A stretch of DNA of 64,000 nt from Xestospongia bergquistia. Taxonomy: Eukaryota > Porifera > Demospongiae > Haplosclerida > Petrosiidae. Below the pieces are notes generated by a model. It did no database searches. It saw only the letters and a list, made by a program, of their open reading frames with translations, and was not told the origin of the DNA. The position numbers and the translations under genes are program-made. This document shows, one piece after another, positions 3,638 to 63,208 of the stretch; within the stretch, counting starts at the first letter, position 1, and each line of letters starts with the position of its first letter. The DNA is taken from positions 7,936,001-8,000,000 of the forward strand of contig OZ014416.1 in NCBI GenBank assembly GCA_963965975.1, given 5' to 3'.

Positions 3638-4062
3638 GAACCTAGGATAGCTACTATTAGTAAACTCTAGACTAATGAACATCAGTACTTACCACAGTGA
3701 CCTAGGATAGCTACCATTAGTAAGCTCTAGACTAGTGAACACCAGTACTTACCACAGTGACCTAAGATAGCTACCATTAGTAAGCTCTAGACTAGTGAAC
3801 ACCAGTACTTACCACAGTGACCTAGGATAGCTACCATTAGTAAGCTCTAGACTAGTGAACACCAGTACTTACCACAGTGACCTAGGATAGCTACCATTAG
3901 TAAGCTCTAGACTAGTGAACATCAGTACTTACCACAGTGATCTAGGATAGCTACCATTAGTAAGCTCTAGACTAGTGAACACCAGTACTTACCACAGTGA
4001 CCTAGGATAGCTACCATTAGTAAGCTCTAGACTAGTAAACATCAGTACTTACCACAGTGACA
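3638..4062. repeat. 60-bp tandem repeat, about 7 units
   Basis: Seven units of 60 bases, most differing at only one or two positions, each containing cctaggatagctaccatt and agtacttaccacagtga. Shorter arrays of the same family, reverse-complemented, are at 36745-36870 and 61280-61490, with a decayed trace near 19120-19190. Read on the other strand each unit contains GTGgtaagtact, a close match to a splice-donor consensus. Confidence 0.92.
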
Positions 4063-7969: not shown

Positions 7970-8215
7970 TGATACACATACTGTTGCTATGGTAATGGTT
8001 AACACATGGCAATATTGCTTGGTAACATACATGCTGTTGATATTAGTCATATTGGTAATGTTGTAACTGTTACTATGACAATGTTGCTATTATAATGGTT
8101 ACCATGGTAATGATTTAGTGACATACATGATGTTGCTATGGTTATTTTGTTATGGCAATCGTTACTGTGGTAAATGTTTCTATGGTGATGATTACTATGG
8201 TGCAGTCCTCTTAGC
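7970..8215. repeat. Degenerate repeats of CTATGGTAATG
   Basis: Loose tandem copies of a roughly 20-30-base unit built on gttgctatggtaatggtta. No coding potential. The rest of 7624-8270 shows nothing else I can support. Confidence 0.6.
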
Positions 8216-8270
8216 ACTAACACTTGGGAGGGCTAGTGAGGTAACCTTGACTATTGGTAGAAACCTCTAG

Positions 8271-9010
8271 CAAATCACCTGCATCATTATTTAAAATAAA
8301 TATACTCACTTCTGGAACTGTTGATATATTAGTCTGCTTTTTGTCTTCCTTTTTATGTATCATTTGCTTTGTTCATTAGATAATACCATAGCAATGCTCT
8401 GGTAAAAGCTTCATTTCAAACACCAGTTGTTAATATTGTGCAATAGTTTTTATAATTTATGTTTGTGAGTTGAAGTTAATGAGATATTAACCCACAAGAC
8501 TCTCCTGTTAAATTACCACGTCCATTGCACTCACTTGTCATTCTTCACTACTGTTATGTTGAAAATCAATTAATTTAGCATATACATATAATTAATAAGT
8601 AGATATTTTCCCTGGTATCTATCTGTATATTTATGTCTTTGGTACTGTATATGACTATAAGTAGTCTTGTTAGCCACCTGTTGTGGTTGTGATTGCTGTC
8701 TGCCATCTCTCTCCTTATTGCTTTAAAATAGTAGTAGCAGTTGAAATCAATATCCTTTAGTTTAACATGGTATCACTCCACTCAGTCCACTAATCAAATA
8801 ATTATTGGTTATTGTCATTTAACAATTTGTTAGCAATCTGTTGGGTGTCCATCACCTCCTTCTTACTACTCTAAAATAGTGGAAGTGCTCAAAATCATTA
8901 TCATTTAATTTAATTTACTATCCCTCAAGACTCCTTCATTCATCAGACCATGCACTAATCAAATAGTATTTGTTACTATAGCAACAAGACTGACACTCTA
9001 AGAGGAGGTT
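8271..9010 (-). pseudogene. Relic of a protease-cystatin promoter and start
   Basis: Read on the minus strand this matches the 5' flanks of the genes at 12031 and 15657 nearly throughout, ending with ATGATGCAGGTGATTTG at 8287-8271, the same first codons as the gene at 15657 (MMQVIC). Homology stops there with an in-frame TAG. It lies directly 3' of the gene at 9233-10618, so in array order it is the promoter of a lost next copy. A TATA-like element (acataaaaagg) lies about 60 bases before the relic ATG. Confidence 0.8.
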
Positions 9011-9232: not shown

Positions 9233-10618
9233 CTAAAAAACAAAAAGACAGCCAGTAGCTAGTCCGATAATAAGGAGCAGTATATGAACATTGAGACCCA
9301 CAGCATCACTTCCTGTGTTCTGCATAGAACCACTTCTTGTATAAGAATAACTTGTGAGATTAAAGAAATTGTCAAGATCTAAGAAGACAATAGCATTAAC
9401 CATTGCTGTAGTCTTGAAATTAGGACACTCCTTGACATCTAGAACAAGCTCTAATGTGACAATCACACCTGCAACAAGTTGTTCTGTGGCATTACTCTTG
9501 GTTGTACTATTAGAAGCTAAGGCATAATAGTCAGGTGTCGTCTCATTATCCCAGCAAAGGATTGGTTGAGACTCATTAAATTCTTCAATCACATGATCAA
9601 TAGCAGCCATTATCAATTCATCAGATGTAATGTTTTGTACTCTTCTTGCAGCACAGTCTGGAGTACTGCTAGTAAAACTTGGGCTGTTGGTATTGCTTCC
9701 AGTTAGTACAGGAGCATAATATCGATTGCGTAATGATAGCACTTGGTCATTTCTGAGGATACGAAAATAACCTTTCTCTCCCCAATCGTCACTCCAGCTA
9801 TTTTTAATCACCCAAAAATTAATACCTCCAGTAGTAGTTCCATAGTCTACTATTTCAACACTATGACCACCAGCTGTGTTGTCAAGATCATCAGATGTAC
9901 TACAATATATTCCACAGCGATACATAAAGAAGGAATCTGGAACAAGCATTGAAGCAATAATGGGACCTTGATTAAGTGCAGAAATAATTTCACTGTTACT
10001 ACTTAATTTTCTATAATTTAGAAGACGTCTATTGTTTGGTTGGAATAAAGACCCATCATTACAGGATGATGGACAATAGTTACTTATTGGAACTGTTTTT
10101 TTATATTTTTCCAAATTATATGGTGCACATTGTTCTGTTACTGCACCCCTAATTTTAAAGAATTCAAATCCAGCTTGAGTTTGAGCCCCACAGCATCCAT
10201 TTTCTTTTGTTACATAAAGTTTGTTTTGGAAACATGCTGCAGGATACTGAGGAGCTAACTGTAAATTAGAGTTACCAGACACATTTAATCGAAGATAATC
10301 TGTGTATGCATGAGTGGCTGCAAAAGCCCAACAGCTACCACAGTCTCCTTGATCTTGAGGTTGATAAAGTTTGTCTGATGCACGTCTCCCTAAAGTATCA
10401 TTCTGGAGGGGGTTGGTTAAGTTACATGTGGCTGATTCAGGTTTTAATTCACTTTGCCATAATTGTGGATTGCACTGAGTATCCCTGCGTTGTCGAAGAT
10501 TGATGATGTGTTGTAAATGGGCATCCCAACGTGCAGATCGTTTTGCAATCCCCTCAGCTCCAACACTGGGCAGGAGTGAGATCAAACTAACTATTGCAAA
10601 GAGGAAAATATTCACCAT
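9233..10618 (-). CDS. Papain-like protease with C-terminal cystatin-like domain, copy 1
   Basis: Intronless, 461 residues. Order: signal peptide (1 to about 21), short pro-segment with conserved SARWDAHLQHII (22 to about 85), C1A protease (about 86-300) and cystatin-like domain (about 325-425), ending in a hydrophobic tail (442-461) typical of a GPI-anchor signal or membrane anchor. Protease residues: oxyanion Gln90, Cys96 in CGSCWAF, His252 in GGHSVEIVDYG, Asn273 in KNSW. The usual GCNGG motif is GCCGA. In the cystatin-like part a helix (AAIDHVIEEFN) precedes the inhibitory-loop motif QxVxG (QLVAG, 380-384) and a strand VTLELVLDVKEC. Family knowledge: cystatins block C1 proteases in trans; cathepsin F carries a cystatin-like domain, but N-terminally. 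A cell-surface, self-inhibited protease is inference. SWS replaces SWG after Asn273. Confidence 0.9.
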   Translation of the reverse strand: MVNIFLFAIVSLISLLPSVGAEGIAKRSARWDAHLQHIINLRQRRDTQCNPQLWQSELKPESATCNLTNPLQNDTLGRRASDKLYQPQDQGDCGSCWAFAATHAYTDYLRLNVSGNSNLQLAPQYPAACFQNKLYVTKENGCCGAQTQAGFEFFKIRGAVTEQCAPYNLEKYKKTVPISNYCPSSCNDGSLFQPNNRRLLNYRKLSSNSEIISALNQGPIIASMLVPDSFFMYRCGIYCSTSDDLDNTAGGHSVEIVDYGTTTGGINFWVIKNSWSDDWGEKGYFRILRNDQVLSLRNRYYAPVLTGSNTNSPSFTSSTPDCAARRVQNITSDELIMAAIDHVIEEFNESQPILCWDNETTPDYYALASNSTTKSNATEQLVAGVIVTLELVLDVKECPNFKTTAMVNAIVFLDLDNFFNLTSYSYTRSGSMQNTGSDAVGLNVHILLLIIGLATGCLFVF

Positions 10619-10666
10619 TTTACTTGAATTCTCAGTACGTTGTAAGATGATACTAGTTTTTGTGCC

Positions 10667-10672
10667 TTTATA
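10667..10672 (-). promoter_or_regulatory. TATA box of protease copy 1
   Basis: TATAAA within gctataaaggc, about 50 bases before the ATG at 10618. The surrounding promoter does not match those of the other two copies, consistent with a rearrangement breakpoint close to the gene start. Confidence 0.55.
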
Positions 10673-10690
10673 GCACTTTTTGTATATAGA

Positions 10691-10857
10691 AAGTTTTGAT
10701 AAAGGTTAACTCCTACACTGATAATCAGAAACTGTTTGTCGTGTGTAGGTTGACTCCTACATTGACAACTGAGTTAAGGGACAGATTGTTGTGGGCTACC
10801 CATGACAACTGAAAATTTACTTGTTATCAATGTAGGAGTGAGCCTTTATCAAAACTT
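10691..10857. mobile_element. MITE-like element with ~34-bp inverted ends
   Basis: The left arm begins aagttttgataaaggttaac and the right arm is its reverse complement with a few mismatches, enclosing about 100 bases that contain a further partial copy of the arm (gactcctacattgacaactg). No coding capacity. It sits where the inverted block carrying protease copy 1 should end. Confidence 0.75.
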
Positions 10858-11146
10858 TGGTTAATTTTTTATGATATTCATGAGCACTGTTAGCAGCTGG
10901 TAATCATAGAAACCTATATACCAAAAAAATAAGAATTGGCTCAAGTCGTGAAATTGTTTGAATTTTTAAAATTATAGTTATAGGTGATTGTCTAGTGACA
11001 TTAATATTATTTTTCTTAAGTTTTGCATAAATTGTAAAAAAAATTATATGTCATTCTTAATTTTCATCTTAACCAATTTCTCACTTACAGTAATTATCAT
11101 TCCATTGTCATAGCAAAAGTTGTCATAGTAACAATATGTATTATGA
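10858..11146. other. Spacer, nothing recognised
   Basis: AT-rich, without an ORF or a repeat that I can name. Confidence 0.5.
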
Positions 11147-11265
11147 TTCTTAACTTTAATGTCACAAGTTATTCATATTATACAAGAAGGGATGCTGTGA
11201 GTCTAAATGTCAATATATATTGCTCCTTGTTATCAGACTGGTTGTCTTTTTGTTGTTAGCTATTA
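11147..11265 (+). pseudogene. Truncated 3' end of a protease-cystatin gene
   Basis: Matches the coding strand of copy 1 from the NLTSYSYT codons (about residue 420) through the hydrophobic tail and stop into the 3' flank, with an internal loss of about 24 bases and frame damage. Everything upstream (protease and most of the cystatin domain) is missing. In array order it is the tail of a lost gene directly before copy 2. Confidence 0.82.
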
Positions 11266-11269
11266 AATT

Positions 11270-11960
11270 TTTATATAGGTACAACTTATGACTGAGTTAA
11301 TTGTAATATTATATATACATTGAGTGACATTGAACTTTATATTTTATTATAGTTCTTGTTATTAGTTTTTGATAAAATAGTTATATTATAGTCAATTTTT
11401 ACAACTAGAGCAACTACTTCAATACTCAGCTTAGGACAGTACTACCCAGAGCTATATATATTATATGATAAGATGTTATATTGTATTTTAGAGTAATAAG
11501 GAAAAAGATGATGGACAACATTGACAACCAACAGGTTAAGTTGTTAAATGCCAATAATCAATAATTATTTGATTAGTGGTCTGAATAAAGTGATACTATA
11601 TTAAATTAGATATTGACTTCAAGCACTTTTACTATTTTTGAGTAACAAGGAACATAAGAAATAGACAGCAATCACAACCACAACAGATGGCCAACAAGAC
11701 TTGTTTATGGTCATATAAAGTACAAAGACATAAGTCACAGATAGATACGATCTACTTATTAATTATTCATATCTAATTTAATTGATTTCATTATAACTGT
11801 GACCAGCAAATTTGTGAATGCAATGATGTGGTCAGGGGAGTCTCGTGGGTTAATAAATATCTCATCACACAAACAAAAACTATTGCACAACTGCTTTATT
11901 AAAGAAATTCTTTTAACAAGACATTGCTATGATGTTATCTACACTTAATAACCAGAAGCA
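11270..11960 (+). repeat. Inter-gene unit of the protease array, unit 1
   Basis: This spacer between a gene tail and the next gene start recurs at 13860-14137 plus about 15000-15590, and in inverse orientation at about 9170-8380. Landmarks are tacaacttatga, ctcaatactcagcttaggac and gtaataaggaaaaag. It carries the promoter of the following gene. Confidence 0.85.
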
Positions 11961-11968
11961 GAACATTG

Positions 11969-11976
11969 TATAAAAG
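11969..11976 (+). promoter_or_regulatory. TATA box of protease copy 2
   Basis: TATAAAAG, 55-62 bases before the ATG at 12031. The aligned position upstream of copy 3 (15590-15600) reads tacagaaagg and has lost the TATA match. Confidence 0.6.
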
Positions 11977-12030
11977 GAAGATAAAGAAAGCATACTCATG
12001 TATCATCTGTTGGATTAGTATTGATTTAAA

Positions 12031-13461
12031 ATGATGCGGGTGACTTCCAATGCAAATCTTTTCCTGTGGCTTCTGGTAATAGTCTCTGTTATCATACTGG
12101 TCCTCCCAAGTGTTGGTGCTGTGAGGACTGCAAAACGATCTGCACGCTGGGATGCCCACTTACAACACATCATCCATCATCGACAACACAGAGATACTCA
12201 TGATCAATTGTGGCAAAGAGAGCAAAATCCTAAGAATGCCATGTGCAAATTGACTAACCTCCTTCAATATGATACTTTAGGGAGACGTGCATCAAACAAA
12301 CTTTATCAACCTCAATATCAAGGACATTGTGGCAGCTGTTGGGCTTTTGCAGCCACTCATGCATATACAGATCATCTTCGATTATCTGGTAACTCTAATA
12401 TAGAGTTAGCTCCTCGATATCCTGTAGCATGTTTTAATAATAGAGACTATGTAGCAGGAGGAAATGGATGCTGTGGTGCTAAAATTGTTGCTGGATTAGA
12501 ATTCTTCAAAACGAATGGAGCAGTAACTGAGCAGTGTGCACCTTATAATTTACAGAACTACATCAATGAAGATAATGAAAAGCCAGAACCGATAAATAAA
12601 TATTGTCCATCATCGTGTAGTGATGGATCATTATTCCAACCAGATAACCAACGTCTTCTTGGTTATGAAACATTGAACAATATCGAAATTATTTCTGCAC
12701 TCGAAAAAGGTCCTGTAATTGTGGCAATGGTAGCAGTAAAAACCTTCCGTTCTTTATATCGCTGTGGAATATATTACAGTACAAATTATGACCGCTTACG
12801 TTTGTATTATACTGATCGAAAAAACTGGCCTTGGCATGCTGTGGAAATAGTAGACTATGGAACTACTAATAGAGGTATTGACTTTTGGGTAATTAAAAAT
12901 AGCTGGGGTGACGATTGGGGAGAGGATGGTTATTTCCGTATCCGTAGAGGAGACCCGATAATGGGCACTATATATTTTGCACCTAATCTAACTGGGAACA
13001 GTAGCAACAACGTGAACCTTGACACCATTGTTTCAACCTGTGTTGCTAGAACAGTAAAGAACGTGACAGCTAGTGTATTGGTATTGGCTGCTATTGATCA
13101 TGTGATTAAAGAATTCAACGAATCTAAGCCAATCCTTTGTTGGGATAATAGAACAACAGCTGACTATTATGCCTTATCTACAGATAACAATTTACAAAAT
13201 AATGCCACAGAACAAGTTGTTGCAGGTGCAATTGTTACATTAGAGCTTGTTCTAGATGTCAAGGAGTGTCCTAATTTCAAGACTACAACAATGGTTAATG
13301 CTATTGTCTTTGTAGATCTTGGCAATAGCTTTAATCTAACAAGTTATTCATATACAAAAAGTGGTTCTATGCAGAACACAAGAAACGATGCATTGGGTCT
13401 CAATGTGCATGTCCTACTCCTTGTTATAGGACTGGTTGCCTTCCTGCTGTTTGGGATTTAA
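12031..13461 (+). CDS. Papain-like protease with C-terminal cystatin-like domain, copy 2
   Basis: Intronless, 476 residues, same domain order as copy 1. Signal peptide about 1-30 with a long hydrophobic core. Catalytic set: Gln97, Cys103 (HCGSCWAF), His269 (WPWHAVEIVDYG), Asn290 (KNSWG). GCCGA at 146-150. Cystatin loop QVVAG at 395-399, followed by the helpful strand motif VTLELVLDVKEC; hydrophobic tail 456-476. Differences: the cysteine after RCGIY is Tyr (YYS for YCS), probably removing a disulfide, and an insertion of about ten residues rich in Tyr/Arg/Lys precedes the active-site His. Several N-glycosylation sequons lie in the linker and cystatin part, as expected for a secreted or surface protein. 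Confidence 0.9.
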   Translation: MMRVTSNANLFLWLLVIVSVIILVLPSVGAVRTAKRSARWDAHLQHIIHHRQHRDTHDQLWQREQNPKNAMCKLTNLLQYDTLGRRASNKLYQPQYQGHCGSCWAFAATHAYTDHLRLSGNSNIELAPRYPVACFNNRDYVAGGNGCCGAKIVAGLEFFKTNGAVTEQCAPYNLQNYINEDNEKPEPINKYCPSSCSDGSLFQPDNQRLLGYETLNNIEIISALEKGPVIVAMVAVKTFRSLYRCGIYYSTNYDRLRLYYTDRKNWPWHAVEIVDYGTTNRGIDFWVIKNSWGDDWGEDGYFRIRRGDPIMGTIYFAPNLTGNSSNNVNLDTIVSTCVARTVKNVTASVLVLAAIDHVIKEFNESKPILCWDNRTTADYYALSTDNNLQNNATEQVVAGAIVTLELVLDVKECPNFKTTTMVNAIVFVDLGNSFNLTSYSYTKSGSMQNTRNDALGLNVHVLLLVIGLVAFLLFGI

Positions 13462-13739
13462 ATCCTGACATCAACTAGTTACAGACTGTAAAATAGCTTA
13501 ATCTTGAGTGACACTGTAGCCTCCTTAATTTTAGGATTGCATTTTTTCTACTTTGCTCAAATATTTGAGTTTAGGCTTTTATTTTTACACTGTTTTCCCC
13601 TGTCAATTTTTAGATTAGATATTCATATAATTCAAAGGGTGTGGTCGATAGTATAATAATTATTATGAAAGAAATTAAATAACTCCACCAGAAGGACACT
13701 CCCCCTGACTAACTATAATATAAACACAATAGATAATAA

Positions 13740-13870
13740 TATATCATACGGACAGTGAGACACAATAAACATACAACTAGTCCAATAACAAGGAGTAATT
13801 ATATATTGTTCATTGATATCAGACTGGTTGTCTTTTTGTTGTTTAGCTATTAAACTATTATATAGTACAA
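13740..13870 (+). pseudogene. Two opposed fragments of protease-gene 3' ends
   Basis: Around 13775-13797 the sequence matches the tail codons and stop region of the protease genes in reverse orientation. From 13800 (attgttcattgatatcagac) to 13870 it matches the same region in forward orientation and continues into the inter-gene unit. This is a head-to-head junction of two short relics. Confidence 0.65.
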
Positions 13871-14137
13871 CTTATGATTGAATTAATTGTAATATTATAT
13901 ACACTGAATGACACTGAGTGTTATTATAGTTCTTAATAACATTCATAATTAATTGTAGTATTATATATGCATTGAGTGACACTGAACTTTTATATGTTAT
14001 TGTAGTTCTTTTTTATTAGTTTTGATAAAATAGTTGTATTATAATCTATTTTTGCAAATAGAGCAGCTACTCCAATACTCAGCTTAGGACAGTGCTATCC
14101 AGAGCTATATATATTATGTAATAAAGATGTTATATTG

Positions 14138-15080
14138 TAACATACCATATATGGAAGTTACCAAATGTATTAACCATTTGATATTAAAGTAGACTTTGGT
14201 TATGTATATACTATCTTCAGTGGAAACATAATTGTGAATTGAAAGAAAATCAATAAAGCAGTCATTATTGATAGCATTTATATGATTTAAAAATAAATCA
14301 AATAAAGAGAACATTATATATATCACTGACTATCAAAATGAAATGTACTAAAGTGCTTAACCTCGCTGCGGTCTTATCCAGAGACTTTCTTTATTCAACT
14401 TCAAGTGACGTAATCTTACGTATGAGCAAGATGACTCATCATTTCTCTTAAGGGAAAAAACCTTTGCCTTTTAGTGGGTACTTTGCACTCTAATTGACAA
14501 AAGGTCCAATACTTTCCAACTTCTTAGTAAAAGTTAGTGATTCTTCAATGACGGCTATGGTGCTAGGATTTTTAGTTCGCGCTCAATGTATCGAGAAAGA
14601 TAACTGCCAAAAGTTAGTAAAACTGTCAGTATTTTTACAAAAATTCTCACTTTAAAAGGTTTGAAAATGTCATAAGCTATATCCAGGAGATTTTTATTGA
14701 ATTCTCGAGTCTTCGCTGAAAGCTGTGCTTTTTTCAAAGGTTTTTCAGACTTTTAAAGCTTTTTGTTCGTTTGACGTTCCTTTTGGCAGTATTCTTAAGA
14801 AGTAAAGAAGTTTTGCTACCCTCCACTATAGTTTGGTGGCTACCAGTGCCATATTTGCCGAGTTAAAGCAGTTCAAAGCCATTTGCCTGGGTAACAGACA
14901 TACACACACACACACACTGACAGACTACTGTAACCCTCACTATTCGCCCACGCACAGCGAGGGTTACTGTAGTCTGCCAGTTTATAGATGGTATTAGATT
15001 AGTACATAGCCTGATGAGTGGAAGAGTCTTGAGGGACAATAAATTAAATTGAACGATAATGATTTTAAGCAGTTACACTA
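14138..15080. mobile_element. Probable insertion splitting the inter-gene unit
   Basis: The inter-gene unit aligned to 11270-11960 breaks off near 14138 and resumes between about 15000 and 15080. The inserted part is less AT-rich and has no convincing gene. Near its right end is an 18-bp inverted repeat (14921-14938 with 14959-14976, one mismatch, 20-base loop). The motif aacctcgctg near 14360 partly matches the reverse complement of the hairpin arm, so these could be element termini. Class not determined. Confidence 0.5.
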
Positions 15081-15656
15081 TTTTAAAGTAATAATGAGAA
15101 AGAAGATGGTCAATATTGACAACTGACATGTGACTAACAAGTTGTTAAATGTCAACAATCAATTAGTATTTGATTAATGGCCTGACCAGTGGAATGATAC
15201 CATGTCAAATTAAAGGATATTGAGTTCAAGTGTTACATGCTATTATTTTAGAGAAATAAGGAGAAAGGAAACAGATAGCAATCACAACCCCAAGTGGTGG
15301 TGGGCCAACAAAACTATAGTTATGGTCACATACAGTACCAGAGCAAATTCTATTTATTAATTATTTATATCTAAATTAATTGATTTTTAAGATAACTGTA
15401 ATGAAGAGTAATGAGCAAACCAGTGAGTGCAATGGATGTGGTCAAGGATGTTTGTGGGCTAATGCCTCATTAACTTGAACATACAAACGTAAATTATAAA
15501 AACTATTGCAACTGGTTTTCGAAAGGGATTTTTTTTAACCACGGCATTGTTATGATGTTGTCTCCACTTATGACTGGAAGCAAAACATTGTACAGAAAGG
15601 AAGACAACGAAAGCATACTAATATATCATCAGTTCTACAAGTGAGTATTCATTCAA

Positions 15657-17078
15657 ATGATGCAGGTGATTTGCAATGCAATTCTTTTATGGCGGCTTAT
15701 AGCAATAGTCAGTATTATCCTACTAGTCCTCCCAAGTGTTAGTGCTGAGAGGACCATGAAACGATCTGCACGTTGGGATGCCCATTTACAACACATCATC
15801 AATCATCGACAACACAGAGATACTCAGTGCAATCCACAATTATGGCAAAGTGAAGAAAATCCTAAATCATCCACATGTAAATTAACCAACCTCCTTCAGT
15901 ATGATACTTTAGGGAGACGTGCATCAAACAAACTTTATCAACCTCAAGATCAAGGAAGATGTGGTAGCTGTTGGGCTTTTGCAGCCACTCATGCATACAC
16001 AGATCATCTTCGATTATCTGGTAACTCTAATCTACAACTAGCTCCTCGATATCCAGTAGCATGCTTTAATAATAGACACTATGTAGCAGGAGGAAATGGA
16101 TGCTGTGGTGCTGCAGTTCATGCTGGATTAGAATTCTTCAGAATTAAAGGAGCAGTAACTGAGCAGTGTGCTCCTTACAATTTACAAAGTTACATCAACA
16201 CAACCAATGAAAAATCAGATCCAATAAATAACTATTGTCCATCGTCCTGCAGTGATGGATCAATGTTCCGACCAACTAATCAACGTCTTCTTAGTTATAC
16301 AAAATTAAATAATGACAATGAAATTATGTCTGCACTTCAACAAGGTCCTGTAATTGTAGCAATGTATGCTATAACATCCTTTAAAAATACATATCGCTGT
16401 GGAATATATTGTAGTACTCAAAATGAATTCAGGAGAATCAATGGACATGCTGTTGAAATAGTTGACTATGGAACTACTACTGAGGGTGTTAACTTTTGGG
16501 TAGTTAAAAACAGTTGGGGAAGTACATGGGGAGAGAATGGTTACTTTCGTATCATCAGAGGAGACCCTATATTGTCAAGATTCAATCAGTCTTTTACTCC
16601 TGTAATAAGAACAAACACTAAAAACAACCCAAGCTATGCTATTGTTTCAGTTTGTGCTGCAAGAGAAATAGAAGATGTTACTGCTAATGAATTGATAATG
16701 GCTGCTATTGATCATGTGATTGAAGAATTTAATGAGTCTCAACCAATCCTTTGCTGGGATAATGAGACGACACCTGACTATTATGTCTTAGCTTCTAACA
16801 GTACAACCAAGAGTAATGCCACAGAACAACTTGTTGCTGGTGTGATTGTCACATTAGAGCTTGTTCTAGATGTCAAGGAGTGTTTGTGCTGCAATATCAA
16901 GACTACAGCAATGGTTAATGCTATTGTCTTTGTAGATCTTGACAACGGCTTTAATCTCACAAGTTATTCATACACAAGACATAAGTCTATGCAGAACTCA
17001 AGAAACAATGCCGTGGGTCTCAATGAGTATACACTATTCATTATTGGATTGATTGTCTTCCTGCTGTTTGGGATTTAA
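15657..17078 (+). CDS. Papain-like protease with C-terminal cystatin-like domain, copy 3
   Basis: Intronless, 473 residues. Signal peptide about 1-30; catalytic Gln99, Cys105 (RCGSCWAF), His264 (NGHAVEIVDYG), Asn285 (KNSWG); GCCGA at 148-152; cystatin loop QLVAG at 391-395; hydrophobic tail about 453-473. The protease half is closest to copy 2 (for example LAPRYPVACFNNR is shared), while the cystatin half is almost identical to copy 1 (ELIMAAIDHVIEEFNESQP is shared), a mosaic pattern. After VKEC this copy has LCCNIK where the others have PNFK, adding two cysteines. All catalytic residues are present. Confidence 0.9.
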   Translation: MMQVICNAILLWRLIAIVSIILLVLPSVSAERTMKRSARWDAHLQHIINHRQHRDTQCNPQLWQSEENPKSSTCKLTNLLQYDTLGRRASNKLYQPQDQGRCGSCWAFAATHAYTDHLRLSGNSNLQLAPRYPVACFNNRHYVAGGNGCCGAAVHAGLEFFRIKGAVTEQCAPYNLQSYINTTNEKSDPINNYCPSSCSDGSMFRPTNQRLLSYTKLNNDNEIMSALQQGPVIVAMYAITSFKNTYRCGIYCSTQNEFRRINGHAVEIVDYGTTTEGVNFWVVKNSWGSTWGENGYFRIIRGDPILSRFNQSFTPVIRTNTKNNPSYAIVSVCAAREIEDVTANELIMAAIDHVIEEFNESQPILCWDNETTPDYYVLASNSTTKSNATEQLVAGVIVTLELVLDVKECLCCNIKTTAMVNAIVFVDLDNGFNLTSYSYTRHKSMQNSRNNAVGLNEYTLFIIGLIVFLLFGI

Positions 17079-26853: not shown

Positions 26854-28528
26854 ATGGAACTGCAATATATTATTCTAATATTTTGTGGTAAATTGATCTA
26901 TAATAGTGGAACCTCTTGGAAATGTCTTCATAGAAGTGTCTTCATTATATAGAGATTGTATAATACACGAAAGTATTAGTATGAGGCTAGAACAAGTGTC
27001 TTCAATATAGAGGGTGTATAATACACTAAAGTATTAGTATGGGACTTGAACAAGTGCCCTCAATATAGAGGTTGTATAATACACTAAAGTATTAGTATGG
27101 GACTAGAACAAGTGTCCTCAATATAGAGGTTGTATAATACACTAAAGTATTAGTATGGGACTTGAACAAGTGCCCTCAATATAGAGGTTGTATAATACAC
27201 TAAAGTATTAGTATGGGACTAGAACAAGTGTCCTCAATATAGAGGTTGTATAATACACTAAAGTATTAGTATGGGACTAGAACAAGTGTCCTCAATATAG
27301 AGGTTGTATAATACACTAAAGTATTAGTATGGGACTAGAACAAGTGTCCTCAATAATATGTAGGTGTCCTTGATACAGAATCTTCCATTATATTTAACGA
27401 ACATTATTTTCCTTAAATATAAAATACCTATCTTTCTTTTAATATTTAGGTTTCTACAACACAATAATGGCATCAAATGCCTCTCTCTTCATAAACTCTA
27501 TCATCAGTTGCTACTCAACACCAAATTGTCACCTTAACCAAAATATAGGCAATGTTATATTGAGTGATTGTTGTAGCAACACAATGCACCACTTCACATT
27601 TGGAACTTTACTTACTTGTGTACATTGTGCACCAATTACCTGCTACAGAAGTGCTAGCTGCAATGGACCTACTATCACTCCAACATCAAATACACTAGAC
27701 CGGTGTTGTAATGAAGGCAACTCCGCAAAACTAACTGGTATGGTTCAACCTCTATTAACACCAGTTGGATACTGTGTACGTTGTCCCAGTCGTGGGTCTT
27801 CAGGAGAAGATCCACACTTTGTCGTTCTTCTTCCCAGTAACCAACAACTTTGTTTCACAGTTCAAGGAGAACGGGGATTCATTTTTAACTTAGTACAAGG
27901 GACACACTTGACAGTGAATGCTATCTTTGTGCATGATAGGGTACGAAAGGAAGTCACATGGATTGGTAGTCTTGCAGTAATAGTCAGTGACACTCAATAC
28001 AACAAAGTAACATTACGTTTTGAAGCTGATAAAGGGATTGTTTACATCAATGAACGTACCCATTTTCACATCCGAAATATATCTGAAATATCTTTTAGCA
28101 AGAAAGGAATGACTGTTAAAAGTACAGTGAAAATAATTCCCTCTCAAATTAATATCAATATTTGGCACATCGGACTCGAGTTTACTGTTGATTTCGTTGG
28201 ACAACATTTGGACACTATTTACCACAAAATTCCAAGTAATCCACACAACTATTCATACCACGGTCTTCTAGGACAGTTCTTTTGTAAAGGTCACAGTATT
28301 GATGAGGTTCGAAAACTCCTCCTATTTCCTACGTCAGAACGGGAACCAATACCTGTCATGCGACGTCCAATTTGGGGTTTTATGGAAAGGGAGTCAGGTA
28401 CTCCAGACCATTTGTGTTGGATGGCCATGAACGTGGGATATCAGGGGGAGGGGCTTATTCAAGGACACTATCTCGACTATGTACGTTCAAATTTGTTCTC
28501 CACAACTGAAAACTATTTCAAAACTTGA
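26854..28528 (+). CDS. Secreted Cys-rich protein with ITIH C-terminal domain, copy 1
   Basis: Two exons, 26854-26887 and 27450-28528, joined in phase 1, 370 residues. Exon 1 is only a signal peptide start (MELQYIILIFCG). The N-terminal third is cysteine-rich with two similar blocks (DCCSN...CVHC and RCCNEG...CVRCP). From EDPHFVVLLP onward the sequence follows the C-terminal domain of inter-alpha-trypsin inhibitor heavy chains: LCFTVQGERGFIFNLVQ, WIGSLAV, YHGLLGQFF and GEGLIQGHYLDYV. No VIT or von Willebrand A domain is present, so this is a stand-alone version. In vertebrates this domain lies downstream of the hyaluronan-attachment site; its role here is unknown. Confidence 0.85.
26930..27355. 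repeat. 58-bp minisatellite array, about 7 units
   Basis: Nearly identical 58-base units (landmark gaggttgtataatacactaa) filling most of the only intron of the ITIH-type gene. Confidence 0.97.
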
Positions 28529-29304: not shown

Positions 29305-30615
29305 TTATATTTTTCCGATTTTAGATGATGAGAACAGATCAGGGCATATGTACTTGAGGTAGTGACCTTGAATAAGCCCCTCCCCCTGATATCCCACGTT
29401 CATAGCCATCCAACACAAATGGTCTGGAGTACCTGACTCCTTCTCCATAAAACTCCAAATTGGACGTCTCATGACAGGGACTGGTTCCCGTTCTGGTGTA
29501 GGAAATAGGAGGAGTTTTCGAACTTCGTCAATAGTGTGACCTTCACAAAAGAATTGTCCTAGAATCCCATGATAATCACAGCTACCTTTATTGGAAGAGG
29601 GTATTAGATGAAATAATATATCTAAATGTTGATTGATGTAGTCCACTGAAAACTTGAGTCCAATCTTTTTGATGTGTATGTGAACATTAGACTCCTTTGA
29701 CTTATAGTCTCCTGTAATTTCCATATGAGTATCTGAGAATTCAATCAACTCTATATTTTGAACGAGTACATGATTTTCTTCATTAATGTATATTGTTTTG
29801 TTAGCTGCTTCAAAACGTAATGTAGTTTTGTTTGATATTTTTGAGAATCCATTCTTAATAATGACAACGAGACTTCCTATCCAAGTGACTTCACTACGAA
29901 CAGAATCAGGTACAAATAAGGCGTTCACTACTAACAGAGGACTTTGTATCAAGTTCAATACAAACCCTTGTTCTCCTTGTACTGTGAAACATAACTGGTG
30001 ACCACTGGGTAGAAGAACAGCAAAGTGGGGATCTAAACCGATACCAGAAGGTTTGTTAGATTTTGGTGGGCATTGGACACAGACTAGCTGATTGCCAATA
30101 GACGAGAGCATGGTCATGGAGTTACCCACACTACAGCACCCTTGCATTGTCTGCCTGCCTTTTGGAAAGTAGACTTGTTGTCCACTACACATGTCTGATG
30201 TGTAACATCGTAACGGAGTACATGTTGTAATGCAAATTCCTTTACTTTCAGTTTCAATGTGAGCAGAGTTAGTTGCATTAGCACAGCATACATCTAATGG
30301 ACAGACCATAGAATTATTTGAAGTGTCAGTAAGATACGGGATTAAGATATCACAAAAAAGCTGTTGGTAGCATAAAACAGTATTGTTTGTGTGCACAACT
30401 TCAATCATCACATTATCATTGTCACCTGTGGAGAGACAAGTTAAAATGATAATTCAAAAAATACATCTAAGTTACAAGTATCAAGGACTTGCATCTAGCA
30501 TGTCAATTGAGTAATATTTTTATGTTTCTATCTCTTTCAAGTCTCTGAGGTAAGATTACTTACCTAGTAATTGCACTAGAAGCATCATTAACAGAGAAGC
30601 TAGATATTCTGCCAT
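29305..30615 (-). CDS. Secreted Cys-rich protein with ITIH C-terminal domain, copy 2
   Basis: Two exons, 30615-30564 and 30425-29305, joined in phase 1 as in copy 1, 390 residues. Exon 1 encodes a signal peptide (MAEYLASLLMMLLVQLLG). The Cys-rich N-terminal third is followed by LDPHFAVLLP, LCFTVQGEQGFVLNLIQ, WIGSLVV, YHGILGQFF and GEGLIQGHYLKYI. It is convergent with copy 1 and has the same intron position, so the pair arose by inverted duplication. The last 60 or so codons are far more similar to copy 1 than the rest. Confidence 0.86.
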
Positions 30616-40499: not shown

Positions 40500-41276
40500 C
40501 TAATCCTCACGTTGCAGCGCCTTAATAAACCTCACACAACCACGAGCTAATTTATAACCCCAAAATAAATTTAAACAATGCAGTATAGAGGTAAGTACTA
40601 CAGCAAATGCTTTAATACTGAAAGGTACATGATAGTCCAAGGATGGATCAAGTTCTCGCATCATACACAAGTACATTGTGTAGACTAATATTGGTAGAGC
40701 AAATATACGAGAAATGAAAAATGTGGTGGTCAATCCGAAGGCATCAAAAATAAATATCCATGACTTTTTACGAGTCTTGGTCTCAGAAAGAACCCAACGG
40801 AGATTGACAAATGGAGTAGATAGTTCTGAGAAAAGATGGAGTAATATTAATATCATCCAACGTCCTTCAAACATAAGTCCAAGAATTACAGCAGTAAAGC
40901 TTGTTATGTGATGTAAAAGCATTTTTCCATCGCTACGTAAGGATGCATGTGACAGTATTGATATAAAATCACCAATAAAATAGCCGGCAGATACTTGAAG
41001 AGCCAGAAAACCTAACTTAGATTTTGACTCAAGGATATCTTCACTCAGTATAGAGCCATATAGAAATGTTGTTATAATAACCGTACATACTACAATAGAA
41101 TGTATCGTAGAACATGGTAGAGTATTCCAATAAACCTTTTGAGCTTCAGTAAAAGAGTTATATCGTTGAAAGAACTTCTTGCTGAGAACGGGGCTCAGTA
41201 TATAGAAACTGGTCAGCGTAAATATTATGAATAATATTGTAACTGGTGTTATAAAGTACTCAGCACCTGTTACCAT
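40500..41276 (-). CDS. TLC-domain membrane protein, copy 1
   Basis: 258 residues from the ATG at 41276 (acaATGG context). About six to seven hydrophobic segments. TLC (TRAM-LAG1-CLN8) family signs: YWNTLPCSTIHS after the first membrane segment, GYFIGDFISILSH, the histidine pair LLHHITSF, and LFSELSTPFVNLRWVL, which most recalls TLCD4/TMEM56. Known members are integral membrane proteins linked to lipid sensing, synthesis or membrane fluidity; a substrate cannot be inferred. A catttcag acceptor at about 41308 just upstream of the ATG is conserved in copies 2 and 3, indicating a 5' UTR intron. Confidence 0.85.
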   Translation of the reverse strand: MVTGAEYFITPVTILFIIFTLTSFYILSPVLSKKFFQRYNSFTEAQKVYWNTLPCSTIHSIVVCTVIITTFLYGSILSEDILESKSKLGFLALQVSAGYFIGDFISILSHASLRSDGKMLLHHITSFTAVILGLMFEGRWMILILLHLFSELSTPFVNLRWVLSETKTRKKSWIFIFDAFGLTTTFFISRIFALPILVYTMYLCMMRELDPSLDYHVPFSIKAFAVVLTSILHCLNLFWGYKLARGCVRFIKALQRED

Positions 41277-41639
41277 TGTTACTTGAGTAAATGTCTTCTT
41301 TGATGATCTGAAATGCCAAATGAATCGAACAGGTCGGCAAAAAACTACCACACTCTCAAAGTCACACCCTCTCCTCTTTACTTTTCAGTTTATATTAAGT
41401 ATTCATAAGTATTCTAAAAATGACTATTTCCTGTCAGGAAGTTCGTGGATATGAAAGTCATTACTTTTTTATATATAGTAGTAATTTATACCCCCTGTAA
41501 TATAATGAGTCCTTGAAACTTCAGTGCAGTATTCTGTTGCCTAAGAATTGACTGTCTAGAGATTTTGACTATGATGATGGTATACTCAAATGCACTAAAT
41601 CTTTTGAATTATATGTATATTTGTCATCCTGTCATGGCA

Positions 41640-41800
41640 AATTTGTTCCTAGTTAAAATTGGACCTAGGTCCAATTTATGCAAGTTAAATTTGGACCTAG
41701 GACCCTGCCTAATTTGGACCTATACTGCAAAATTTGTTCCCAGAGATAGGTCCACTTTTGGCAGCAAAATATGGTCCTAGGTCTCCTTTTGGCAGCATAT
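41640..41800. repeat. GGACCTAGGTCC-rich low-copy repeat
   Basis: Several short direct and inverted copies of ttggacctagg and ggcagcaaaat. Non-coding, class unknown. Confidence 0.5.
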
Positions 41801-41849
41801 AATCTAAATAAAGACAACATATGTTCTGTAATTATAGGTTATATTATAA

Positions 41850-42405
41850 AGGTAATGCTACGATTAATTAAGAGTTTTTACACAAGTGCCACATATCCAT
41901 GATATGTGCCTCTTGGTCTGCCAAATGGCTCTTGAGACTTCAACACAATCTTCATAATATCAGTCTTTGCAGTTTTCACACTTAATCATTCTACCCCTTC
42001 TGCTTGACGACACTTGTAGTACTTGTAGTATACTCCAAATTTAATATCAGCAACACATTGTTTTGCTTTCATTTTTCACCACTGGCAAGGGAATGGGTTA
42101 ATTGTCTTATTTTCAAGAGAGTGAAAAAGGTGGTCCCTTAATTGATGTTGAATATAGGTTATTTGTGTTGGAATTTGCCCGCCACAAAGAGATGTGGCAA
42201 AAGCTAATGAAAAACACCACAAACATTTGCAAAACGTCCACCAATGTTTGGATAGGCATCTTTCAGAAGCTTTTGTGCAGCAGTAATGACTATGTTACTC
42301 AGCAACCTGTCATTGATCAATGATTTTCTGTCTGACAGAAACAAAGTTAATTCTTGTATCCAATATATGGTTGGGACGTCTTTCTTGTTTGTTGGTCCAC
42401 ACACT
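41850..42405 (-). pseudogene. Decayed transposon-type gene: C48-like plus PHD-like pieces
   Basis: Minus strand. The first part reads LSDRKSLINDRLLSNIVITA, then AQKLLKDAYPNIGG, which resembles the start of Ulp1/C48-like regions in invertebrate transposon-related proteins. After frame breaks, the second part reads RRGRMIKCENCKD, a TGA stop, then YYEDCVEVSRAIWQTKRH and ICGTC, a PHD-finger-like Cys pattern in which the usual Trp is now the stop codon. No intact ORF. Confidence 0.5.
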
Positions 42406-42428
42406 CTATTGGAAAAGAGCTAAGTAGT

Positions 42429-42524
42429 ATAAATATTGAACCCACAGTTTGCTACTGTTAATGATTTCATTTGTAATACTTCTGCTATTAATAAAAAGTA
42501 GCAAACTGTGGGTTCAATATTTAT
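42429..42524. mobile_element. 96-bp palindromic MITE
   Basis: Arms of 28 bases (left ataaatattgaacccacagt...; right its exact reverse complement) enclose a 40-base loop. No coding capacity. Confidence 0.85.
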
Positions 42525-43286
42525 ATCAGTGACCAAGTACACTTTAATGAAACCAATGTTAGATTACTCTTTCTTGACATTGTTAATGTCACATTGGAAT
42601 GGGTATCAGTCCAGAAGAGTTCTGTTTTGGACTCTGTCTAGATCTAGTTAATGCTTATAATGGTGTGTTTGTCTCTGGTTTGATTAGCAGAAGTAACAGT
42701 CTACTCAACATATGAAAATAATTTGATATTGCAAATTTATCCTGAATATTTAATATTATTTTACAAAACATAATATTATTGTCAGTTTGAAGATACTAAT
42801 GGTAAGTATCTATGTATCTATAGCGGGTGAGCTTCAGAATTGAGGAAAATTGAAAGGTCTCCACTCTCCAGTCTAGTCAAGGAGAGTCCAATAATAAAAA
42901 GCACAGTTAGCACACACCTACATTTTTCATCAGCACTAGTAAATTAAAGTGTTTCAATTTAATTTTATCATACGTGTGTAATAAAAAATAAAATTTGTGT
43001 GTAATGATAGACACTGACTTGGGTTGGTTCGATTATTTAGAGAGGCCGAGAACGGACATTAAAACTCCGTATAACCCCGTTATATTGAAATTGGAATGGA
43101 ATGTCCGCTTCCGTACCGATACCTTCCAAAATCCTTATCGCTGACATATTTTATGAGTCATCTTTTAATATTACTGTCATGCTTAATAATACATAATGAG
43201 TTTATTATATATTAAAGTTCAATTCAATTACCAAAATTAATGTTTATAATATAACTAGAAAATGTACATTTATTATATTGAATTGT
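42525..43286. other. Spacer, nothing recognised
   Basis: AT-rich with no ORF. A somewhat GC-richer stretch at 43025-43130 has no family that I can name. Confidence 0.5.
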
Positions 43287-44054
43287 CTAATCTTTTTTTG
43301 ATTTCAGAATTTTCAATTTCAGAAACTTCAAAAAGCCACGAGCCACTTTGTAACCCCAAAATATATTCAAGCAATATTGTGTAGTTCCTAATAACACAAG
43401 GAATATGTTGAGATAGAGAGATAGATCGAGTTCTTTCATCAAACAAAAATACGTTAAATAGATTTGTAATGGAATAGGAAAAACACGTGAGCCAAGAAAA
43501 GTGATGGTCATTCCAAAGGAATTGGTAATAGCTAACCAAGAATTTTTAGGAGTCTTGGTCTCAATAAATAACCAATGGAGGTTGACAAATGGAGTGGATA
43601 GTTCTCCGAGATCATGAAGTAGCATTAACATCATGCAGCGTCCTTTCCATGCAAGTGACAGAAAAAAAGTGATAAGGATTGATATGTGATGTACAATCAT
43701 TACAGTATCACTACGTAAGGAGATATGTGACAGCATTATTATTAAATCACCACTAAGGTAACCAAAAGTTAATTGAATAGGAAGAAAACCTAACTTACAT
43801 TTTGAATAAGGTATGTAATCATTCAGTATAGAGCCATCTAGAAATATTATTACAATAACTGTACACACTGCAACAGCATGTATTGTTGAACACGGAAGAG
43901 AATTCCAGTAGATCTTTTTATCTTCAGTAAAAGAGTTATATTGTTGAAAGAACTTTTTGCTAAGAACAGGGCTCAGTATATAGAAAGAGATCAATGTAGA
44001 TATCAATGATGATATTGTAACTGGTGTTATAACATAGTCAGCACTTATTTCCAT
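43287..44054 (-). CDS. TLC-domain membrane protein, copy 2
   Basis: 255 residues, intronless CDS. The TLC pattern is kept: YWNSLPCSTIHA, GYLSGDLIIMLSH, the His pair MIVHHISI, DLGELSTPFVNLHWL. The His-pair segment is conserved but the following membrane segments diverge from copies 1 and 3. A ttttcag acceptor lies 30-50 bases upstream of the ATG, as in copies 1 and 3. Confidence 0.83.
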   Translation of the reverse strand: MEISADYVITPVTISSLISTLISFYILSPVLSKKFFQQYNSFTEDKKIYWNSLPCSTIHAVAVCTVIVIIFLDGSILNDYIPYSKCKLGFLPIQLTFGYLSGDLIIMLSHISLRSDTVMIVHHISILITFFLSLAWKGRCMMLMLLHDLGELSTPFVNLHWLFIETKTPKNSWLAITNSFGMTITFLGSRVFPIPLQIYLTYFCLMKELDLSLYLNIFLVLLGTTQYCLNIFWGYKVARGFLKFLKLKILKSKKD

Positions 44055-44149
44055 TCTTATCTTATAAAACTGGCTCTTTTGATGGTCTGAAAACAGTGAG
44101 AGAGGAACAGGTCAGAAACCAGCTTTCAAGTCTCTAATGTGCTAAGGAG

Positions 44150-44410
44150 TAGTAGATTTCCTACAAGGAAGTTTAGTATTGATCAATAAACTTGTGAATC
44201 ATCTATAATAGCACTTTATCGTATATACATTATACTAGACACTATATTTCCTACAAGGAAGTTTAGTATTGATCAATAAACTTGTGAATCATCTATAATA
44301 GCACTTTATCGTATATACATTATACTAGACACTATATTTCCTACAAGGAAGCTTAGTATTGATCAATAAACTTGTATAATAGCACTTTATTGTATGTACA
44401 TTATACTAGA
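44150..44410. repeat. 90-bp tandem repeat, three units
   Basis: Units start near 44161, 44251 and 44341 with ctacaaggaagtttagtatt; the first two are almost identical and the third carries a deletion. A fourth trace, ctgcaaggaagtttagtac, lies upstream of TLC copy 3 near 46155, so the unit probably derives from the TLC promoter region. Confidence 0.93.
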
Positions 44411-44686
44411 TACTCTCACAATAGTTATATTTCATGGAAAATAAATGTAGCACAATTTCAATATCTGCTGTTATCAATCATTGACTATTTTAAAATCTCA
44501 GATGACTAAAACATATTCAAGCAATCTAACTGAGTTGTATTTTTCAGAAAGATAGGTCCATGGTTTGAATTATAAGAATGGCCCAAGATAATAAGTAATG
44601 AAGTTAATCTTAGATTTTTATGAAGTTAATTATATAGGTCATTGATAATTCAGTGTCCTCTCTTGTGCAAAATCTACTTTACCAAC

Positions 44687-45115
44687 TCAAGCTTGTTTTT
44701 GTGAACTAATAAACTCAACAGCTTCTTCATATTTATCTTCATTGGTAGAGTAGATCTCATGATGTGGGAGAACCACCTGTGGCAGACCTTCCAATAGGTG
44801 GAGGAGCTCTGTTGCTATGGTAACACAATCCCTAGTACTAAGTAATACTTCACATGTACCACAATGAGGTAAATCACTGACAATACCTGTATATATACAT
44901 GTACATGTACACTTGTATATATAATATTATTATACCTGGAGAAAAAGTCCATCTTTATAATTATGTCTTATAACATGTTGACCACGTCATATAGTTTGCC
45001 CACTCGTTTTAGCTGACTTGGATGACATGTACAGATCAATATCTCACAATGATTTGCCTTTTCTTTGAGAGCTGGTTTATCTAAATCACATAGACGAGTG
45101 GCAAGATAGTTAATG
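44687..45115 (-). pseudogene. Exon fragments of an unrecognised gene
   Basis: Two minus-strand exon-like segments. The 5' segment, from 45115 after a ttatag acceptor, reads INYLATRLCDLDKPALKEK then ANHCEILICTCHPSQLKRVG and meets a stop near 44968. The 3' segment, 44886-44687 after a tatacag acceptor, reads IVSDLPHCGTCEVLLSTR and ends EEAVEFISSQKQA with TGA. Codon-like composition suggests a former gene, but no start exon or phase-compatible donor joins them. I do not recognise the family. Confidence 0.4.
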
Positions 45116-45235
45116 CTATAATGATAAAATTGAATGACCTTTTGGCAACGTTATTGTTTGATTTGCACCCTTATGGAAGCCATTTTTCTGTGTCAAATTA
45201 GATACCATGTTTAATTAAATTAGAAAAATGTACAT

Positions 45236-46033: not shown

Positions 46034-46248
46034 TGTTATATTTACTAGTTCCTTTGGTGGTCTGAAAACAGTGAGCTCGAGCTCGATCGAGAGAGGGACG
46101 AGTCAGAAATCAACTCAAGTCTCTAATCTATTAAAGAATAAATAACAGGATTTCCTGCAAGGAAGTTTAGTACATCTATTGCAAAAAACTTGTGAATTTA
46201 ATTTTTTATTAATATTATAACATTTTCGATTGATACACATCAAATTAG

Positions 46249-46865: not shown

Positions 46866-46899
46866 CGGTAAGTTTGACTCAATATTTTATAAAATATGA

Positions 46900-50755: not shown

Positions 50756-50819
50756 GAGGTCTTTTTCTGACACCAACCCGAACAAGAGCACATACTTTTT
50801 ACATTCTTGCTGTAAACAC

Positions 50820-56344: not shown

Positions 56345-63208
<6,864 letters not shown>

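What the first reader, a model, noticed from the sequence alone, without database searches (positions are those of the whole stretch)
9233..17078. Cysteine protease fused to a cystatin-like domain at its C-terminus
Seen: all three paralogues keep the papain Cys-His-Asn set and oxyanion Gln, followed by about 100 residues with a cystatin layout: helix with EFN, then QxVxG (QLVAG or QVVAG), then the TLELVLDVKEC strand. A hydrophobic C-terminal tail follows. Known: cystatins inhibit papain-like enzymes through QxVxG; cathepsin F has a cystatin-like domain but N-terminally in the pro-region. Inference: a surface-tethered protease with a built-in inhibitor on the exit side, which could act in cis, in trans on neighbours, or as a switch after cleavage of the linker. 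I know of no described family with this order, but I cannot search.
Basis: partly seen in the sequence, partly recalled or inferred. Interest (0 to 1): 0.92.

Follow-up and report, generated by a model that had tools for sequence, protein, structure and literature searches.

The report
Sponge protease with cystatin-like tail domain
A sponge genome carries tandem genes for a protein-cutting enzyme that ends in a domain resembling the natural inhibitor of such enzymes, apparently tied to the cell surface; the order is the reverse of the known animal case, but neither the inhibitor fold nor inhibition could be proven here.

Summary
Three uninterrupted genes (461, 476, 473 aa; 64-71% identical) encode papain-family (C1) peptidases with all catalytic residues, a C-terminal domain of about 107 residues carrying QLVAG/QVVAG, and a hydrophobic tail that reads as a GPI signal. 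A fourth, frame-broken copy lies 5.9 Mb away; searches found the domain at no other place in this genome. The host is a sponge (atp9-bearing mitochondrial contig).

"Cystatin" is likely, not proven. Pfam Cystatin is the best of 24,736 models for all four domain copies, but below cut-off (13.8-14.9 vs 22.2 bits). Cystatin profiles beat nearly all shuffles; with QxVxG masked the signal is weak. Of the three cystatin contact elements only QxVxG is kept: the N-terminal Gly is Ala, and PW/LP is LD or LG. A conserved N-glycosylation sequon sits four residues before the Gln. AlphaFold2 with three rows failed on the certain papain domain too, so structure is undecided.

No inhibitory prodomain was recognised, so I favour a built-in brake on a tethered protease (0.42); a non-inhibitory glycosylated stalk is close behind (0.32). 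The papers listed by my searches describe no such C-terminal order. New variant of a known kind.

The parts
9233..10618 (-). paralogue 1 (P0001, 461 aa): apparent signal peptide, short pro-region, C1 peptidase, cystatin-like domain, hydrophobic tail
   Evidence: ORF and translation; Peptidase_C1 E 3.8e-40
9725..10375 (-). Peptidase_C1 match of paralogue 1 (residues 82-298; Cys96, His252, Asn273)
9338..9655 (-). cystatin-like domain of paralogue 1 (residues 322-427)
   Evidence: Pfam Cystatin best hit E 0.066, below cut-off; profile tests
9467..9481 (-). QLVAG of paralogue 1 (residues 380-384)
   Evidence: read directly
9236..9328 (-). C-terminal tail of paralogue 1 (residues 431-461), candidate GPI signal
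   Evidence: sequence; GPI reading is inference
12031..13461 (+). paralogue 2 (P0002, 476 aa)
   Evidence: Peptidase_C1 E 1.1e-37
12289..12954 (+). Peptidase_C1 match of paralogue 2 (residues 87-308; Cys103, His269, Asn290)
13039..13356 (+). cystatin-like domain of paralogue 2 (residues 337-442)
   Evidence: Pfam Cystatin best hit E 0.032, below cut-off
13213..13227 (+). QVVAG of paralogue 2 (residues 395-399)
   Evidence: read directly
15657..17078 (+). paralogue 3 (P0003, 473 aa)
   Evidence: Peptidase_C1 E 1.5e-40
15747..15884 (+). short pro-region of paralogue 3 (residues about 31-76) with no recognisable I29 or cathepsin B propeptide
   Evidence: no propeptide family in Pfam, no PDB match, pairwise test against two cathepsin B propeptides not above shuffles; limits of the region set by eye
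15918..16565 (+). Peptidase_C1 match of paralogue 3 (residues 88-303; Cys105, His264, Asn285)
16653..16976 (+). cystatin-like domain of paralogue 3 (residues 333-440)
   Evidence: Pfam Cystatin best hit E 0.072, below cut-off
16815..16817 (+). Asn387 of the NAT sequon four residues before the Gln of QxVxG; the sequon is present in 4 of 4 copies
   Evidence: glycosylation itself is inference
16827..16841 (+). QLVAG of paralogue 3 (residues 391-395)
   Evidence: read directly
16992..17075 (+). C-terminal tail of paralogue 3 (residues 446-473), candidate GPI signal
   Evidence: sequence; GPI reading is inference

Best explanation
A small tandem family of sponge secreted C1 cysteine peptidases in which a divergent cystatin-derived domain is fused C-terminal to the protease and is probably held at the cell surface by a GPI anchor. 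SHOWN: order of parts, intact catalytic residues, intact QxVxG, similar purifying selection on both domains, no recognised inhibitory prodomain. LIKELY (about 0.75): the domain descends from, or folds as, a cystatin. INFERRED: it acts as a built-in brake. The QxVxG hairpin would block the active site of its own chain or of a neighbouring tethered copy with modest affinity, taking over the latency role that the N-terminal prodomain plays in ordinary C1 zymogens. Cleavage of the variable linker (P0003 residues about 316-332) would release an active soluble protease and leave the domain on the membrane.
For: Peptidase_C1 E 1.1e-37 to 1.5e-40 with complete catalytic set. Cystatin is the best of 24,736 Pfam models for 4 of 4 domain copies, aligned over QxVxG. 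With a type-2 cystatin profile 1, 2, 1 and 0 of 5000 shuffles reach the observed score for copies 1-4; with a nine-cystatin profile 0, 4, 3 and 0. hhalign local score: 1 of 500 column shuffles with each profile. The joint alignment places helix, QxVxG and the following strands, with 14 residues from the Gly to the Cys of KEC, as in cystatin C (counted by eye). Both AlphaFold2 runs, though of very low confidence, give helix, strand, strand at those places. Foldseek of the poor domain model ranks a cystatin first, not significantly. dN/dS 0.37-0.55 for the domain and 0.41-0.46 for the peptidase over three pairs. No I29 or other propeptide found.
Against: Pfam score below cut-off in 4 of 4; no Cystatin row for the 3 full-length proteins; PDB searches with the domain list no cystatin up to E 10. 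The first hhalign run gave HH-suite probabilities of only 2.4 and 1.3%. With QxVxG masked, 18-295 of 5000 shuffles reach the score for the three window copies and 17-18 for the fourth, so much of the signal is the motif itself. The N-terminal Gly and PW/LP elements are not kept. A NAT sequon four residues before the Gln could put a glycan beside the inhibitory hairpin. Q, V and G lie in a block that is nearly invariant as a whole among close paralogues, so their conservation is not separate evidence. Foldseek hits are not significant (best E 1.6). Inhibition and linker cleavage are untested.
Confidence: 0.42

Rival explanations
1. Cystatin-derived but non-inhibitory: a glycosylated stalk or localisation module that lifts an otherwise regulated protease off the membrane, as degenerate cystatin domains serve other roles (fetuins, recalled; the cystatin domain of cathepsin F has no established role).
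For: Only one of the three inhibitory contact elements is kept. Four sequons in the domain are shared by the three window copies, one beside QxVxG. A hydrophobic tail follows directly. PMC2654340 (passages) states in 2009 that the physiological role of the cathepsin F cystatin domain had not been established.
Against: Q, V and G are kept in 4 of 4 copies, one of them frame-broken elsewhere, although the surrounding block is also nearly invariant. No other inhibitory prodomain was recognised.
Confidence: 0.32
2. Trans-acting: the tethered domain inhibits other papain-like proteases (food-borne, microbial or the sponge's own), with the attached protease serving separately.
For: Cystatins classically act in trans (general knowledge); the genes are multiplied in tandem, with decayed pieces nearby, as is common for interaction-driven families (inference).
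Against: Nothing found here points to a foreign target; both domains show similar constraint.
Confidence: 0.1
3. Not a cystatin: an unrelated glycosylated membrane-proximal domain with a chance QxVxG.
For: Sub-threshold Pfam score; weak masked scores; HH-suite probability 1-2%; no confident fold.
Against: No other family scores better for any of the four copies. The helix aligns in register even with QxVxG masked: 1 and 4 of 500 shuffles reach that score. Among 613 ORFs (overlapping loci repeat some) the four genes stand 1st, 2nd, 3rd and 5th of distinct ORFs under the type-2 profile.
Confidence: 0.16

Closest known systems
Cathepsin F (C1A peptidase with a cystatin domain in its N-terminal prosegment)
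   Same: A papain-family protease and a cystatin-like domain in one chain; role of that domain not established according to PMC2654340 (passages).
   Different: Here the domain is C-terminal and followed by a hydrophobic tail, and no I29-type propeptide is recognised.
RD21-like plant proteases (C1A peptidase with a C-terminal granulin domain)
   Same: C-terminal accessory domain behind a C1A protease; in RD21 its removal needs the protease's own catalytic Cys and His (PMC3292552, abstract).
   Different: Granulin, not cystatin-like; RD21 has a removable prodomain; plants.
Type-2 cystatins (I25B)
   Same: Helix ending in EYN/EFN, QxVxG, 14 residues from Gly to Cys, following strands; scores above stefin profiles.
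   Different: No N-terminal Gly, no PW, different cysteine pattern, 12-residue insertion, fused and apparently tethered.
Stefins of this sponge (three matches at C4:9.306-9.313 Mb)
   Same: QxVxG and similar spacing of the strands after it.
   Different: Unfused and split by introns as read by eye; the stefin profile scores the three window domains hardly above shuffles (97-153 of 2000 reach it; 5 of 2000 for the fourth copy).

Membership tests
Peptidase family C1 (PF00112) | profile match over the curated cut-off | tested here: met
   130.7-140 bits against 20.7 for 3 of 3 window proteins
Peptidase family C1 (PF00112) | catalytic Cys, His, Asn and oxyanion Gln | tested here: met
   present in 3 of 3; the fourth, frame-broken copy also keeps them
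Peptidase family C1 (PF00112) | N-terminal inhibitory propeptide (I29 or cathepsin B type) | tested here: not met
   no propeptide in Pfam for 3 of 3, none in PDB for paralogue 3, no pairwise match for 3 of 3; a divergent propeptide is not excluded
Cystatin superfamily (PF00031, MEROPS I25) | profile match over the curated cut-off | tested here: not met
   13.8-14.9 bits against 22.2, though best family in 4 of 4
Cystatin superfamily (PF00031, MEROPS I25) | QxVxG first hairpin | tested here: met
   motif QLVAG or QVVAG in 4 of 4 copies; hairpin conformation not shown
Cystatin superfamily (PF00031, MEROPS I25) | conserved N-terminal Gly | tested here: not met
   Ala in the aligned column in 4 of 4 copies
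Cystatin superfamily (PF00031, MEROPS I25) | PW (type 2) or LP (stefin) second hairpin | tested here: not met
   LD in three copies, LG in paralogue 2. PMC7913475 (passages) reports LP replaced by LD (LS once) in the sponge stefins it surveyed; this host's own stefins read LQ
Cystatin superfamily (PF00031, MEROPS I25) | cystatin fold | tested here: inconclusive
   pLDDT 39 and 29; the papain domain failed too; Foldseek best hit a cystatin at E 1.6
Cystatin superfamily (PF00031, MEROPS I25) | inhibits C1 peptidases | not testable with these tools
   needs biochemistry
Cathepsin F | cystatin-like domain N-terminal to the protease | tested here: not met
   domain is C-terminal in all four copies
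GPI-anchored proteins | cleavable C-terminal signal with omega site | not testable with these tools
   by eye: [SN][DN]A, spacer and hydrophobic run ending at the C-terminus in 4 of 4 copies; rule recalled, no predictor run

The most novel reading that the evidence does not exclude
An animal protease in which the zymogen brake has moved from the N-terminus to the C-terminus: a fused, membrane-anchored cystatin keeps its own C1 protease latent at the cell surface, and cutting the linker frees the enzyme while leaving the inhibitor on the membrane. It would be an origin of protease-cystatin fusion independent of cathepsin F, and a type-2-like cystatin domain in a phylum where a 2021 survey reported none.
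Probability: 0.25. Interest if true: 0.75.

Novelty: new variant of a known kind. Interest (0 to 1): 0.52.

Why it matters
Protease and inhibitor normally meet as separate molecules, or with the inhibitory segment in front. A fixed one-to-one fusion at the back would be a natural self-limiting, surface-bound protease and would make the open question of what the cystatin domain of cathepsin F does testable in a second arrangement. It also bears on cystatin evolution. The 2021 survey of basal animals found no multi-domain cystatins and no type-2 cystatins in Porifera (PMC7913475, abstract and passages), although a 2009 survey lists cystatins as well as stefins for sponges (PMC2784779, passages).

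Tried and rejected
Structure prediction: A2 (domain, 3 rows) gave pLDDT 39, pTM 0.27; A1 (full length, 3 rows) gave pLDDT 29, pTM 0.18. Because the papain domain, certain by sequence, failed as badly, the failure says nothing about the cystatin domain. Foldseek on the poor domain model: 37 PDB rows with E up to 10, none with E up to 0.001; 7 of 37 rows are cystatins (from three entries), including rank 1 (repeated). I treat this as a hint only, since Foldseek also uses sequence.

Relatives elsewhere: none by tblastn in genome contigs or viral contigs with the full-length alignment or the domain alignment; no phage match for paralogue 3. Other sponge proteomes could not be searched here. In the own genome the domain was found at 4 places (in which only 4 candidates were scored). 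A fifth weak place (E 0.27, C6:5985439) showed no resemblance when its ORFs were read.

Stefin origin: tested because PMC7913475 reports LD at the second hairpin of sponge stefins. The stefin profile does not score the three window domains much above shuffles, though it does the fourth copy (5 of 2000), and this host's stefins read LQ, not LD. Type-2 is the closer match. Cathepsin B-type propeptide: rejected (223-777 of 2000 shuffles reach the score in six comparisons). TAL-effector rows come from summed repeats and are not meaningful.

Literature (open-access PMC library only): nine searches. Searches returned nothing; several lists were cut (20 of 65, 20 of 39, 40 of 56 and 12 of 97 papers listed). 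None of the titles and abstract openings listed describes a C1 protease with a C-terminal cystatin domain. That is not proof of absence in print.
Full report
WHAT IS THERE. The window holds three uninterrupted reading frames: 9233-10618 (-), 12031-13461 (+) and 15657-17078 (+), of 461, 476 and 473 residues. Copies 1 and 2 are each 71% identical to copy 3 in the alignment; by tblastn the pairs are 64-70%. Each has an apparent signal peptide (by eye), a short pro-region, a C1 peptidase domain (E 1.1e-37 to 1.5e-40) with Cys, His, Asn and oxyanion Gln in place, a variable linker of about 17 residues (limits by eye), a domain of 106-108 residues and a hydrophobic tail. The closest solved structures to copy 3 are cathepsin B and other C1A enzymes at similar scores (84 bits and below). 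In the 146-Mb genome the C-terminal domain was found at four places: these three and one at C6:2.08 Mb. That copy is frame-broken near the N-terminus but keeps QVVAG and the catalytic residues. Gene-sized and flank similarities inside the window show further decayed pieces, so this is a tandem family with gains and losses.

HOST. Contig C21 is an 18,997-base mitochondrial contig (cox1 reads through under code 4) with an atp9 gene of 78 residues and 25 tRNA calls. Mitochondrial atp9 and about 25 tRNAs are traits of demosponges (recalled, not from a call).

IS THE DOMAIN A CYSTATIN? For: scanned alone, all four copies have Pfam Cystatin as best family, E 0.072 (copy 3), 0.032 (copy 2), 0.066 (copy 1) and 0.048 (fourth copy), aligned over QxVxG and the following strand. 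A profile built here from nine cystatins is reached by 0, 4, 3 and 0 of 5000 shuffles for copies 1, 2, 3 and the fourth; a profile of seven type-2 or kininogen sequences by 1, 2, 1 and 0 of 5000. hhalign of the four-row domain profile scores 24.5 and 24.9, each reached by 1 of 500 column shuffles; reversed rows score 9.9 and 12.2. Ranked among 613 reading frames of at least 60 residues from the window and the loci then held (overlapping loci repeat some), the four genes stand 1st, 2nd, 3rd and 5th of distinct ORFs with the type-2 profile, and 1st, 3rd, 4th and 6th with the nine-cystatin profile. The joint alignment puts Ala in the column of the N-terminal Gly in all four copies, AIDHVIEEFN on ALDFAVGEYN, Q[LV]VAG on QIVAG, KEC on TTC with the same 14-residue spacing from the Gly, and IVFVDLDNGFNLTSYSY on the last two strands.

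Against: none of the copies reaches Pfam's cut-off of 22.2 bits, and Cystatin is not listed when the three whole proteins are scanned up to E 10. PDB searches with the single domain of copy 3 or the three-row profile list no cystatin up to E 10. A first hhalign run, with another alignment setting, gave HH-suite probabilities of only 2.4 and 1.3% (E 0.007 and 0.016 for one comparison). With QxVxG masked, hmmsearch scores are reached by 17-175 of 5000 shuffles (nine-cystatin profile) and 18-295 of 5000 (type-2 profile). hhalign with the motif masked still aligns the helix in register, reached by 1 and 4 of 500. So the motif carries much of the signal, with an independent but weak contribution from the helix. 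A 12-residue insertion with CWDNETT separates helix and second strand. The four copies are close paralogues and are not four independent pieces of evidence.

STRUCTURE. The domain model has pLDDT 39 and the full-length model 29. The papain domain, certain by sequence, has block means of 22-33 in the second run, so these failures reflect the three-row alignment. Both runs place a helix at P0003 residues about 343-361, a strand beginning at the V of QLVAG and a second strand at about 414-427. Foldseek of the poor domain model ranks canecystatin first and has 7 cystatin rows of 37, none significant (best E 1.6). I count this as a hint. I put the probability that the domain is cystatin-derived or cystatin-folded at about 0.75. 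By the family's own tests it cannot be filed as a member.

HOW IT MIGHT WORK. Ordinary C1 zymogens are held off by an N-terminal propeptide. Here the pro-region matches no propeptide family and no cathepsin B propeptide better than shuffles. The C-terminal domain keeps the central hairpin motif of cystatins. The tail ends in a hydrophobic run without basic residues after it, preceded by [SN][DN]A in all four copies, which reads as a GPI signal (rule recalled). Both domains are under purifying selection of similar strength (dN/dS 0.41-0.46 and 0.37-0.55 over three pairs). The simplest mechanism is a tethered protease with its brake attached, released by cutting the linker. Cysteines other than the catalytic one, signal and tail left out, are odd in number on each side (11+3, 9+3, 11+5). 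That would fit a disulfide between the two halves, but pro-region cysteines are included and this is weak. The strongest arguments against inhibition are that the Gly and PW elements are not kept and that a sequon (NATEQ) conserved in all four copies lies four residues before the Gln. A glycosylated, non-inhibitory stalk is therefore a close rival.

WHAT IS KNOWN. [quoted passage not shown] PMC2654340 (passages) says its physiological role had not been established. [quoted passage not shown] PMC4390278 (abstract) gives G, QxVxG and PW as the motifs of the cystatin-like domain. PMC7913475 (abstract and passages) found no multi-domain cystatin in basal animals, no type-2 cystatin in Porifera, and LP to LD (LS once) in sponge stefins. 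PMC2784779 (passages) lists cystatins and stefins for sponges. Nine searches of the open-access library (several lists cut short) listed no paper describing a C1 protease with a C-terminal cystatin domain.

VERDICT. A real, intact gene family with an unusual order; a new variant of a known kind (protease-cystatin fusion). The fold and the inhibitory role remain open.

Noticed in passing
window 11182-11364, 13823-13871, 13952-14018, 8201-8660: Pieces similar to the 3' end and flank, or the 5' flank, of the protease genes: probably remains of further copies, so the cluster has lost members.
   Followed up: partly
window 9338-9655 (-) and 16653-16976 (+): Copies 1 and 3 are much more alike in the C-terminal domain (dS 0.17) than in the peptidase domain (dS 0.46), which suggests gene conversion.
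   Followed up: partly
G000:C6:2079106-2080520 (L016): Fourth copy of the same architecture, with a frame break near the N-terminus and a short deletion after the active-site Cys; described only.
   Followed up: partly
window 40500-52850: Six similar uninterrupted ORFs in tandem on the minus strand; the one scanned is a TLC-domain (TRAM_LAG1_CLN8) membrane protein, E 7.3e-24.
   Followed up: partly
window 27443-28528 (+) and 29305-30453 (-): Two related ORFs sharing a block like LDPHF.VLLPS..QLCFTVQGE and matching no Pfam family at E 0.001.
   Followed up: no
window 56345-57550 (-): SH2 plus tyrosine kinase, Src-type order, in one open frame.
   Followed up: no
G000:C9:1502757-1523415; also C9:3183978 and C10:2084964: A cluster of C1 peptidase matches split exon by exon, and three places with active site CxSCYAF instead of CGSCWAF. 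The pattern used would also have shown a Ser in place of the Cys and found none in the loci scanned, 26 of the 30 plus six earlier ones.
   Followed up: no
G000:C6:3154917-3155898 and 3199148-3200446: Stop-bearing cox1-like stretches in a large contig, probably nuclear copies of mitochondrial DNA.
   Followed up: no
window about 3640-4060: Tandem repeat with a unit of 60 bases, read by eye; not run through a repeat finder.
   Followed up: no
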